Below the pieces are notes generated by a model. It did no database searches and was not told the origin of the DNA. It was given only the letters and a program-made list of their open reading frames with translations. A stretch of 6,446 nt of DNA from NCBI GenBank assembly GCA_017939025.1, contig JAGBAI010000091.1:1-6446 (forward strand), in the 5' to 3' direction. This DNA comes from Oscillospiraceae bacterium (lineage in GTDB: Bacteria > Bacillota_A > Clostridia > Oscillospirales > Oscillospiraceae). Positions within the stretch are counted from its first letter, which is position 1. Each line of letters starts with the position of its first letter. Shown here piece after piece: positions 1,521-6,446 of this stretch. Both the position numbers and the translations under genes were made by a program.

Positions 1521-3170
1521 ATGAAATCAAACCACAATTTAATAACCGCCCTCTACACCCGCCTGTCTCAGGAGGATCTGCTGCAGGGTGAATCCAATTC
1601 CATCCGCAACCAAAAGCTCATCCTGCAAAAGTATGCGGACGATCATGGCTTCCATAACTGCCAGTTCTATGTGGACGATGGTTACAGCGGTGCTGACTTC
1701 AACCGCCCGGACTTCAAACGAATGATGGCCGATATTGAAGCTGGTAAGGTCGGTACGGTCATTGTGAAAGATCAATCCCGGCTGGGCAGAGATTATCTGC
1801 AAACTGGTATGCTCATGGAGATCACCTTCCCGCAGTATGATGTTCGGTTCATTGCCATCAACGATGGTGTGGACAGTGCAAACGGTGTCAGTGATTTCTC
1901 AGGCATCAAAAACTACTTCAATGACTTCTATGCCAGAGATACCAGTCGAAAGATCCGGGCCGTCATCAAAGCGAAGGGAGAACGTGGAGAGAGAATCAGC
2001 ACAGCTACTCCTTACGGATTTATGCGTGACCCGGAGAATCCGAAGAAGCTGATTCCTGATCCGGAAACCGCACCAATCGTAAAACGGATTTTTGAGATGC
2101 GTGTCAATGGCATGGGTGTAGTTAAAATCTGTGATACACTCAGTCGTGAAAAGATCATCAATCCCGGTTTATATATGTTCCGAAGAAATGGTAATCGTTC
2201 TGGGCAGCCAAATCCGGATCGTCCTTATCACTGGGCACAGAACACCGTCCGAAAGATACTTGCCAACCGGGAATATGTGGGTGACACGGTGAACTTCAAA
2301 ACCTATTCCAAGTCCAACAAACTGAAGAAACGGCTAAACAATGCACCAGAGAACATACTGATCTTTGAAAATACCCATGAAGCAATCGTTGACCGTAAGA
2401 CCTTCGATCTTGTTCAAAAGCATTTCGCAGGAAGGAAGCGTCCCGATATTCAAGGTGAGGTGGATAAGTTTGCTGGCTATGTATACTGCGGCGAATGCGG
2501 AAAGCGATTGTATCTGCACCGGGGCAAAACAATCAAACCGGAAAACAATCACTTCCAATGCGGAGGTTTCCAAAGCAGAACAACAGACTGCACTGCACAT
2601 TACATCCGGGAATCTGTTCTGGAAGAGATCGTGTTGACAGACCTGAGAAAAATGACTGTTCTCGCAAGAGAACAGCCAGAGGAATTCTATAGAATGGCGA
2701 TGGCAAACGGTGAGGAAGAAGCCAGGATGTTCCATGACACCGCAACCCGGCAGCAAAACAAATTGAACGCAAGAATCAAAGATCTGGACAACATCATCCG
2801 ATGCCTGTACGAGGACAGAGTCTGCGGACGGATCACCTTGGAACGCTATGATACCATGGCTGGTAGCTACGAGCAGGAACAGGCAGAATTGAAACTGGAA
2901 CTGGAAAGTATCTCCGCACAGATCAGCGAAATGAATCTGCGGGAAAAGTATATCAAAGACTTCATGGAAAATGCCCGGACATACATCGAGATGACGAAGC
3001 TGACACCGGAACTCCTGAGAGTATTCATCCACCGAATCGATGTATACGAAAAAGAAGAAAAGTATTCCAGAACCTGTGGAAACACCATCATGATTCACTA
3101 CACATTTAAGGTATCCCTAAGCAAAACTGCGGCTGCCATAAAAACAGCCGCAGAGAAACAAGAAAAATGA
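1521..3170 (+). CDS. Large serine recombinase, TndX/TnpX type
   Basis: A 549-residue site-specific recombinase that should excise and integrate the element by concerted double-strand cleavage through a serine-DNA link. The resolvase catalytic domain spans about residues 7-155. The nucleophile is Ser16 in ALYTRLS, with the conserved arginine motif SRLGRD at 86-91. The Recombinase domain (about 163-305) is followed by a zinc ribbon with C323, C326, C347 and C357, a coiled-coil stretch (about 410-475) and a DUF4368-like C-terminus (about 472-528). Length is close to TndX of Tn5397 (533 residues). All key residues are present and the frame is intact, so it is probably active. The start has GGAAAGGA about 12 bases upstream, a rather long spacing, and sits just after the competing hairpins. 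Confidence 0.95.
   Translation: MKSNHNLITALYTRLSQEDLLQGESNSIRNQKLILQKYADDHGFHNCQFYVDDGYSGADFNRPDFKRMMADIEAGKVGTVIVKDQSRLGRDYLQTGMLMEITFPQYDVRFIAINDGVDSANGVSDFSGIKNYFNDFYARDTSRKIRAVIKAKGERGERISTATPYGFMRDPENPKKLIPDPETAPIVKRIFEMRVNGMGVVKICDTLSREKIINPGLYMFRRNGNRSGQPNPDRPYHWAQNTVRKILANREYVGDTVNFKTYSKSNKLKKRLNNAPENILIFENTHEAIVDRKTFDLVQKHFAGRKRPDIQGEVDKFAGYVYCGECGKRLYLHRGKTIKPENNHFQCGGFQSRTTDCTAHYIRESVLEEIVLTDLRKMTVLAREQPEEFYRMAMANGEEEARMFHDTATRQQNKLNARIKDLDNIIRCLYEDRVCGRITLERYDTMAGSYEQEQAELKLELESISAQISEMNLREKYIKDFMENARTYIEMTKLTPELLRVFIHRIDVYEKEEKYSRTCGNTIMIHYTFKVSLSKTAAAIKTAAEKQEK
3127..3153 (+). repeat. Inverted repeat inside the recombinase 3' end
   Basis: CTGCGGCTG (3127-3135) and CAGCCGCAG (3145-3153) are perfect 9-bp arms around an AT-rich 9-base loop. 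They lie within the last codons of the recombinase, where they encode an Ala/Lys-rich tail. No T tract follows, so it is not a standard terminator. It may protect the mRNA 3' end or simply reflect the repetitive KTAA codons. Confidence 0.45.
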
Positions 3171-5220: not shown

Positions 5221-5252
5221 CGTAGGGGGCGATGTGGGCATCGCCCCCTACG
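5221..5252. repeat. 14-bp palindromic repeat with CGTAGGG ends
   Basis: CGTAGGGGGCGATG (5221-5234) and CATCGCCCCCTACG (5239-5252) are perfect 14-bp arms around TGGG. It is more GC-rich than its surroundings and has the same CGTAGGG/CCCTACG termini as the 144-bp element at 6290-6433, so the two look like members of one dispersed family. The plus-strand tail (5253-5278) is T-rich, so it could also act as a second terminator for the gene ending at 5170. Confidence 0.75.
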
Positions 5253-5312: not shown

Positions 5313-6230
5313 TTACTCTTTCGTTTTCTTTTTTCTTCTGGGGAGCTTTTTGAAAAGCACAAAGGCAATGGCAGCAAACACGGCAAAGACAGCAATGTAC
5401 GGGGAACAGACAATGAGCCACACGAAGGCATCCACGAAGCCTTCGCCCACGCCTTCCAGACTGTCTTTAAAACCGCCGGTGATCCGCTCCCAGATGGTGG
5501 GATCCTCCACGGGAGTATATTCCTGCACTTCACGCAGACTCAGGTGAATGGTGGCAAAGTCCACCTGGTTGTTGTAAAGCCGCAGCTGGGAAGTAACAGT
5601 CTCCAGTTCATAGCGAACATCGGTAAGCCGGGCCTCGATCTCCAGAAGATCCGCCATTGTTTCGGCCTCGGCCAGCAGCTCCAGCAGCCGGGCTTCCTCG
5701 GCCTGCAGGGCCTTCATGCGGCTTTCTGTGGCAGTATAGGTCAGGGTGATGTCTTCCAGTGACTTTTCCTTGCTGACAACATTGGCAATGCCAGCCACTT
5801 CTTCCGTAAATTCGTCCACCCGTTCTGCGGGGATCCGGACGGTCAGATTGGCATTGCGATAGCGGCGGTTGGCGTAGGCGCTGCCGTTGTAGATGCTCTG
5901 GTTTTCCACATAGCCGCCCATTTGGGTGATATGGGCATCAATGCCGGTGATGGCAGTGTCCAGATCCTCGGCCTCGGCATCCATGTAGACGGTGACGATC
6001 CATTTACGCTCCTGGGGAAGCGCGGTGGAGGAAGGTTCCGCACCTCCCTCGGTCAGGGCTGCGGCGGAGTCCATGGCCACTGCCTCCTCCGCATATTCCA
6101 TGGGCGCACCCATGCTGGAATTCATGGCAGCAGGCGCAGCGGCCTCGGTCTTGTAGTTGCTGCCGGCACTGGCACCGCAGCCGGTCAGCAGCAGAAGCAG
6201 CGCAAGGGTCAGAGCCAATAAGCGTTTCAT
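5313..6230 (-). CDS. DUF4349 lipoprotein with C-terminal membrane anchor
   Basis: A 305-residue protein with AAGGAGGA (6238-6245 complement) seven bases before its ATG. Residues 1-18 form a lipoprotein signal, with MKR, a leucine-rich core and the lipobox LTGC, so Cys18 should be lipidated outside the cytoplasmic membrane. A low-complexity Ala/Met/Glu linker (about 19-75) follows. The DUF4349 domain then starts at a beta region (about 77-165, including GGYVENQSIY and LTVRIPAERVDEF). It continues with a helical coiled-coil hairpin (about 168-220) and a strand (223-232). A hydrophobic segment (about 266-294) and a basic tail PRRKKKTKE make a C-terminal anchor, so the domain would be tethered at both ends. 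The function of DUF4349 proteins is unknown to me. The gene is convergent with its neighbour and bracketed by the two CGTAGGG repeats; no strong promoter is visible in 6246-6289. Confidence 0.85.
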   Translation of the reverse strand: MKRLLALTLALLLLLTGCGASAGSNYKTEAAAPAAMNSSMGAPMEYAEEAVAMDSAAALTEGGAEPSSTALPQERKWIVTVYMDAEAEDLDTAITGIDAHITQMGGYVENQSIYNGSAYANRRYRNANLTVRIPAERVDEFTEEVAGIANVVSKEKSLEDITLTYTATESRMKALQAEEARLLELLAEAETMADLLEIEARLTDVRYELETVTSQLRLYNNQVDFATIHLSLREVQEYTPVEDPTIWERITGGFKDSLEGVGEGFVDAFVWLIVCSPYIAVFAVFAAIAFVLFKKLPRRKKKTKE

Positions 6231-6289
6231 TTTCTTTTCCTCCTTATGGTATTTTAATTTCAGTTTATCGGGCTGTTTGAATACGTCAT

Positions 6290-6433
6290 CGTAGGGACCG
6301 TCCTCCCGGACGGTCCGCCCAGAAATCCGACCTCAATGGGCGGATTTCTGGAATTTATACGGCGAACGTTGCGAAAAAATTGCCCATCGAGGTCAATTTT
6401 TTCGACGGACCGTCCAGGAGGACGGTCCCTACG
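6290..6433. repeat. 144-bp four-hairpin palindromic element (MITE/REPIN-like)
   Basis: The ends are 28-bp inverted repeats (6290-6317 and 6406-6433) matching at 27 of 28 positions. Each end also folds on itself as GGACCGTCC-N4-GGACGGTCC (6295-6316 and 6407-6428). Inside are two further hairpins with perfect 11-bp stems and 11-base loops: 6319-6351 and 6372-6404. They are placed symmetrically, two bases from the outer hairpins, around a 20-base centre. Loop ACCTCAATGGG (6330-6340) is complementary to loop CCCATCGAGGT (6383-6393) at 10 of 11 positions. No ORF is present and no target-site duplication is obvious. A non-autonomous mobile repeat is the best reading. Confidence 0.8.
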
Positions 6434-6446
6434 CCAATTCGATAAA

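What the first reader, a model, noticed from the sequence alone, without database searches (positions are those of the whole stretch)
6290..6433. Mirror-image four-hairpin element whose inner loops are conserved and complementary while the stems covary
Read as inverted copies, hairpins 6319-6351 and 6372-6404 share 10 of 11 loop bases (ACCTCRATGGG), but their stems differ at 5 of 11 positions, and all five differences keep base pairing on both sides. That is a compensatory signature within a single sequence, implying selection for each hairpin and for the loop sequence. The complementary loops could kiss in RNA or single-stranded DNA, or be recognised by a transposase or other protein. This goes beyond a plain MITE with terminal inverted repeats.
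Basis: seen in the sequence. Interest (0 to 1): 0.72.

Follow-up and report, generated by a model that had tools for sequence, protein, structure and literature searches.

The report
REP-type mobile repeat with loop-conserved hairpins
This is a real, repeated 142-base element of four hairpins that looks like a small passenger of a bacterial single-strand-DNA transposase; its two inner hairpins keep the same loop and the same mismatch while their stem letters change in matched pairs, which makes it a good test of what such enzymes read.

Summary
The element is window 6291-6432 (GTAG...CTAC, 142 bp). I collected 76 elements with 117 inner hairpins from the window and ten other genomes. The outer hairpins are inverted GTAG-tagged REPs. 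The inner hairpins lie 39-43 nt from the GTAG in 115 of 117. They share the apex CTCRATG and mostly a purine-purine mismatch two pairs below it (101 of 117); their 11-bp stems differ but stay paired. Chosen by loop alone, 33 of 39 exact matches in four genomes sit in a stem, and all 33 follow a REP foot; the other 6 have neither.

Best explanation: a REPIN mobilised by RAYT (HuH/Y1) transposases, each end being a double-hairpin module. REPs identical to the element's lie in or beside RAYT genes of three host genomes. One RAYT unit (L238; 1 of 50 RAYT loci examined) has the same inner hairpin beside its REP. There is no target duplication of 4 bp or more (0 of 76).

Kissing loops are not supported: loop variants do not covary (30 of 41 same, 31.3 expected). 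Double-hairpin REP ends have precedents (PMC3733652), so this is a new variant of a known kind. What reads the conserved loop is unproven.

The parts
6291..6432 (.). whole element, GTAG...CTAC, 142 bp, mirror-symmetric
   Evidence: relatives with the same ends
6291..6316 (+). left outer REP: GTAG foot (6291-6294) and 9-bp hairpin with loop TCCC
   Evidence: foot as described for REPs in PMC6006769 passages
6319..6351 (+). inner hairpin 1, apex CTCAATG at 6332-6338, A.G mismatch at 6330/6340, 11-bp stem
6352..6371 (.). spacer; the most variable region in relatives (mean diversity 0.50 in G002, 0.28 in G151, 0.23 in G004)
6372..6404 (-). inner hairpin 2, apex CTCGATG on the minus strand (6385-6391), A.G mismatch, 11-bp stem of different sequence
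6407..6432 (-). right outer REP, inverted: 9-bp hairpin (6407-6428) and GTAG foot on the minus strand (6429-6432)

Best explanation
The element is a non-autonomous REPIN (inverted dimer of GTAG REPs) of gut Oscillospiraceae and relatives, copied in trans by RAYT (TnpA-REP, HuH/Y1) transposases that act on folded single-stranded DNA. Each end is a double-hairpin module: GTAG foot, REP hairpin, then a second hairpin whose pentaloop TC(G/A)AT lies about 41 nt from the foot. Shown: anatomy, repeated occurrence, fixed geometry, loop and mismatch conservation with covarying stems, identity of its REPs with RAYT-borne REPs in three host genomes, one RAYT unit with the same second hairpin at one end. 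Inferred: that a RAYT moves it, that the second hairpin folds in single-stranded DNA, and that it is read by loop and mismatch (by the RAYT or a partner protein), so that the stem need only stay paired.
For: 33 of 39 loop-only matches in stems, all 33 behind a REP foot. 100 CTCRATG hairpins in all fetched loci: 95 have GTAGG 39-42 nt upstream, 5 a damaged or shifted foot; control heptamers gave 9 hairpins at 454 sites. Apex 39-43 nt from GTAG in 115 of 117, mirror orientation in 41 of 42 two-hairpin elements, purine-purine slot in 101 of 117. RAYT genes of G151 (L255) and G150 (L253) carry, and that of G126 (L251) is flanked by, REPs identical to REPs of elements L180, L194 and L213 of the same genomes. 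L238 in G134: REP, 151-aa RAYT, TC hairpin, inverted REP. No target duplication. Known TnpA-REP proteins read GTAG plus loop bases or mispaired positions (PMC8266576).
Against: The RAYTs found in G002 and G005 carry other REPs, G004 has only a weak fragment, G003 and G141 have no match of this class. Only 1 of 50 RAYT loci has a TC hairpin in its unit, at one end only. The inner hairpin has no GTAG foot of its own. L251 has a stop in frame. Inner slots can be filled by unrelated hairpins or be empty, so the TC hairpin is not indispensable. Within G151 and G004 the stems are no more variable than the loops. No binding or movement was tested.
Confidence: 0.72

Rival explanations
1. The stems stay paired mainly because hairpins template their own repair (template switching at quasi-palindromes), and the loop is largely inherited; selection on the inner hairpin is weak.
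For: L036 has one inner hairpin flipped within the element, as a hairpin-based exchange would do. Paired double changes are about as common as single ones in G002 A-type hairpins: 9 double, 10 single. In G004 one apex (0.21) is almost as variable as the spacer (0.23).
Against: It does not explain a heptamer kept across eleven genomes with different stems (pooled diversity 0.07 against 0.47), nor a mismatch that is kept unpaired in 101 of 117, which templated repair should remove.
Confidence: 0.12
2. The element works as RNA (mRNA 3' or 5' structure, kissing loops, terminator).
For: Very stable fold. G-T outnumbers A-C 35 to 16 in the CTCRATG strand among 93 distinct hairpins.
Against: The two hairpins show their preferred strand in opposite directions. 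No loop-loop covariation: 30 of 41 same, 31.3 expected. No Rfam match, no terminator or promoter call at 6200-6446. The G-T excess is weak: copies are related and the hairpin caller accepted G-T.
Confidence: 0.08
3. A MITE of a DDE transposase with long terminal inverted repeats.
For: 52-nt arms, 85% complementary; several dispersed copies in relatives.
Against: Target duplications: 0 of 76 at 4 bp or more, 1 at 3 bp (1.1 in shuffles), 1 at 2 bp (3.4 in shuffles). Ends are GTAG REPs shared with RAYT loci. No search for DDE transposases with matching ends was made.
Confidence: 0.03

Closest known systems
REPINs / head-to-head GTAG REP dimers with RAYTs (PMC3733652: outline, abstract, passages and section 16; PMC3116915: search listing only)
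   Same: two inverted GTAG-footed hairpins, dispersed copies in relatives, RAYT genes flanked by REPs
   Different: here each REP is followed at a fixed distance by a second hairpin with a conserved loop and mismatch; that paper's main text has no occurrence of Firmicutes, Clostridi- or Ruminococc-
REP units joined to a second stem-loop at RAYT ends in Pseudomonas putida and P. fluorescens; A. tumefaciens CGTC-3 dimers with two stem-loops in the spacer (PMC3733652)
   Same: double-palindrome ends and four-hairpin dimers exist elsewhere
   Different: the passages read describe no loop kept while stems covary; the sequences were not compared here
E. coli and Marinomonas REP hairpins read by TnpA-REP (PMC8266576: passages and section 27)
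   Same: recognition can rest on loop bases (Marinomonas) or an unpaired stem position (E. coli), with stem changes partly tolerated
   Different: there the read hairpin is the REP itself beside GTAG; in E. coli loop letters were not enriched and in Marinomonas an added mismatch lowered activity; here the conserved loop and mismatch are in the second, foot-less hairpin
Subclass 2.4 RAYTs with in-frame REPs and 'double foot' REPs (PMC6006769 section 13)
   Same: 29 of 48 RAYT loci here hold a head-to-head REP pair inside the gene; the window has a double-foot palindrome at 5222-5251
   Different: subclass membership was not tested by a tree

Membership tests
REPIN (RAYT-mobilised inverted REP dimer) | GTAG/GTGG tetranucleotide at the foot of a hairpin | tested here: met
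   6291-6294 and 6429-6432 (minus strand), hairpins directly next to them
REPIN (RAYT-mobilised inverted REP dimer) | two REPs close together in inverted orientation, GTAG outside | tested here: met
REPIN (RAYT-mobilised inverted REP dimer) | multiple dispersed copies in one genome | tested here: met
   met in relatives, e.g. 17 places in G002 and 11 in G004; the window's own genome is not held
REPIN (RAYT-mobilised inverted REP dimer) | RAYT gene in the same genome with the same REP | tested here: inconclusive
   identical REP in G126, G150, G151; other REPs in G002 and G005; weak fragment in G004; no match in G003 and G141; not testable for the window's genome
REPIN (RAYT-mobilised inverted REP dimer) | mobilisation by the RAYT | not testable with these tools
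   needs an assay
DDE-type MITE | target-site duplication | tested here: not met
   0 of 76 at 4 bp or more
RNA kissing-loop element | covariation between the two loops | tested here: not met
   30 of 41 same, 31.3 expected
Known RNA family (Rfam 15) | match at gathering score | tested here: not met
   0 matches in the window

The most novel reading that the evidence does not exclude
The TC(R)AT hairpin is a second, foot-less recognition site read only through its loop and mismatch, in the manner of attC or IS200 hairpins. It is shared by units with quite different REPs, so perhaps read by one common factor, and gives REP ends a two-hairpin code with freely drifting stems.
Probability: 0.3. 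Interest if true: 0.65.

Novelty: new variant of a known kind. Interest (0 to 1): 0.48.

Why it matters
Nature has run the mutagenesis: about 90 distinct hairpins keep the loop and usually the mismatch while the stem changes in pairs. If the inner hairpin is a protein site, the long-standing question of what a single-strand transposase reads in a folded substrate (letters, loop or unpaired bases) becomes directly testable with ready natural variants, in a clade that the REP papers I read hardly cover.

Tried and rejected
Plasmid and phage BLAST gave no match; the strict two-loop pattern gave 0 in viral contigs. Of the 15 loci, seven carry the element (L003, L005, L006, L007, L010, L012, L013). 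Seven show no REP foot and no such stem (L001, L002, L008, L009, L011, L014, L015). L004 (Polyangiaceae) has the loop motif three times inside one GTAG palindrome, but the genome's other matches are not in such structures; I treat it as chance or unrelated.

Order-wide loop-pair pattern: 19 of 295 genomes matched (backward control in 4); of 19 loci fetched only the G002 one has a TC hairpin. In the family of G002, R1 hits in 25 of 120 genomes; none of 44 loci fetched from other genomes there has a TC hairpin.

I first read the 180-197-bp REPINs with RAYT-coding interiors as deletion derivatives; they are parts of RAYT genes with REPs inside, already in print for subclass 2.4.

Selections to tell. 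A1: 20 of the 27 elements, the less regular ones dropped. A2: 23 hairpins picked from the 54 rows, degenerate ones dropped, so its 98.8% paired is flattering. The 117 hairpins passed a pairing threshold (7 of 10) and come from elements partly found with a structure model; one false call (in L211) was removed. The type split is contaminated in G151 and G005, so only its G002 A-type line is used. The gene-context scan is crude: 15 of 31 elements in a gap between frames, 16 overlapping an open frame. PF01797 also catches IS200-type genes. R1 scored only part of the candidates and listings were cut.

Full report
Observation. The window holds a 142-bp element at 6291-6432, GTAG...CTAC. Two outer hairpins (6295-6316, 6407-6428) and two inner ones (6319-6351, 6372-6404) have fully paired stems; as single-strand DNA they fold to -11.1, -11.4, -14.1 and -11.9 kcal/mol. 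The region's RNA fold has z = -11.75.

Relatives. The window's genome is not held. A loop-only pattern found relatives in four GTDB MAGs: Oscillospiraceae RGIG3015 (G002), RGIG4139 (G004) and RGIG5457 (G005), and Lachnospiraceae RGIG4182 (G003). There 39 sites match ACCTCRATGGG exactly: 33 are in a stem and have a REP foot upstream, 6 have neither; the backward pattern matches 3 times. A covariance model of 20 elements (R1) hit 4 of 5 genomes and 20 of 41 genomes of the G004 genus. I found inner TC hairpins in G004, G005, G126, G140, G141, G150, G151 and G154 and in G135. In the family of G002, 25 of 120 genomes had R1 hits, but 44 loci fetched from genomes other than G002 hold no TC hairpin; those I read are REPINs with other interiors or RAYT genes. 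So REPINs are widespread in that family and the four-hairpin form is narrower.

Anatomy. I collected 76 elements with 117 TC hairpins: 42 elements have two, 33 have one, 1 has none (after removing one false call). Of the 42, 41 are mirror images; the exception, L036, has one hairpin flipped. CTCRATG starts 39-43 nt from the GTAG end in 115 of 117; the others are a truncated copy and the flipped hairpin. Two pairs below the loop is a slot with A-G 71, G-A 15, G-G 12, A-A 3 (101 of 117 purine-purine), 11 Watson-Crick, 3 T-G, 2 C-A. Pooled over genomes, mean diversity is 0.07 in the heptamer and 0.47 in the stems. Stem cells are 1211 Watson-Crick, 36 G-T, 16 A-C and 24 others of 1287. Among 35 distinct A-type hairpins the outer pairs occur as two to four Watson-Crick types, while three A-T pairs hardly vary; 56 distinct T-type hairpins vary at more pairs (the split is crude). 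Within one genome the picture is softer: G002 apex 0.09-0.12, stems 0.16-0.26, spacer 0.50; G151 apex 0-0.02, stems 0.03-0.12, spacer 0.28; G004 apex 0.04 and 0.21, stems 0.02-0.05, spacer 0.23. So the hairpins as a whole are kept against the spacer; that the loop is kept against the stem is plain mainly across genomes and hairpin types. The second slot can hold an unrelated hairpin (G150, G126, some of G005) or none.

Link with REPs. Among all loci then fetched I found 100 CTCRATG hairpins: 95 have GTAGG 39-42 nt upstream, the other five a damaged or shifted foot; 16 of 236 sites outside hairpins also have GTAGG nearby; four control heptamers gave 9 hairpins at 454 sites, one of them with GTAGG. 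Most loci were chosen for holding elements, so free-standing TC hairpins were not met rather than excluded.

Link with RAYTs. The L238 protein finds relatives in 11 of 14 chosen genomes and in 44 of 200 of the family at 1e-20. Genes in G151 (L255) and G150 (L253) hold REPs identical to those of elements L180 and L194; the gene in G126 (L251, one stop in frame) is flanked by the REP of element L213 and has another AT-rich hairpin beside its right REP. In G134 (L238) the unit reads REP, RAYT of 151 aa, TC hairpin, inverted REP, the apex 39 nt from the GTAG end. This is 1 of 50 RAYT loci with a TC hairpin in the unit (L255 has a separate element about 1 kb away). The L238 protein matches PF01797 at 31.5 bits, above its cut-off of 23, and NCBIfam REP-associated tyrosine transposase at 74.1 bits, below its cut-off of 80. 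Against the link: RAYTs seen in G002 and G005 carry other REPs, G004 has a weak fragment, G003 and G141 have no match.

Insertion. Target duplications: 0 of 76 at 4 bp or more, 1 at 3 bp, 1 at 2 bp, no more than in shuffles. A pyrimidine precedes GTAG at 132 of 152 ends, with lineage-specific dinucleotides (CT in G002, TC in G151 and G150). PMC8266576 speaks of CT- and CA-carrying cleavage substrates (passages), which fits loosely.

Mechanism. TnpA-REP proteins bind folded single strands in a strand-specific way, through GTAG plus loop bases or mispaired positions; in E. coli the unpaired state matters more than its letters (PMC8266576: passages and section 27). A hairpin with a fixed loop, a fixed mismatch, a fixed distance to the foot and a free but paired stem is what such a reader would leave behind. 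I infer that the inner hairpin is read like this; no call shows binding. A weak sign of strand preference agrees: G-T outnumbers A-C 35 to 16 in the CTCRATG strand of 93 distinct hairpins, with the caveats that copies are related and the caller accepted G-T.

Rivals. Kissing loops lack covariation. There is no Rfam match and no terminator or promoter call. Template switching at palindromes can add paired changes and would explain the flipped hairpin of L036, but not the kept loop and kept mismatch. A DDE MITE fails on target duplications.

Known ground. REP dimers with structured spacers, and REP units joined to a second stem-loop at RAYT ends in Pseudomonas, are in print (PMC3733652: outline, abstract, passages, section 16). 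In-frame REPs inside RAYT genes and double-foot REPs are in print (PMC6006769: passages and section 13). My searches for this clade or motif listed nothing that describes it; I read three papers in part, and the library lacks most subscription journals. Hence: new variant of a known kind.

Noticed in passing
L252-L255, L259, L260, L262, L263, L271-L274, L276-L282, L284, L286-L293, L295: 29 of 48 RAYT loci hold a head-to-head pair of GTAG REPs inside the RAYT gene; frames read run through them. The kind is already described (PMC6006769 section 13).
   Followed up: partly
window 5222-5251: A lone perfect palindrome GTAG...CTAC ('double foot' REP) just downstream of the 578-aa DUF6020 protein.
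   Followed up: partly
window 1521-3170: Large serine recombinase (Resolvase, Recombinase and zinc-ribbon domains, DUF4368), with small unnamed frames before it: the left half of the window looks like part of an integrative element.
   Followed up: no
L036 (G002:C157:13476-13615): One inner hairpin is flipped relative to its REP, the only one of 42 two-hairpin elements; suggests hairpin-based exchange.
   Followed up: partly
L192-L202 (G150), L213 (G126), L135 and L136 (G005): One inner slot is filled by an unrelated hairpin (e.g. a TCC-loop hairpin in G150): the inner hairpins behave as exchangeable modules.
   Followed up: no
L076 (G004:C96): Another Y1 gene with several GGGGACGGTTC-type repeats around it and no GTAG REPs: perhaps a different transposase-repeat pairing.
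   Followed up: no
L005 (G003): A single full element in a Lachnospiraceae MAG on a 7.5-kb contig: transfer or mis-binning cannot be told apart.
   Followed up: no
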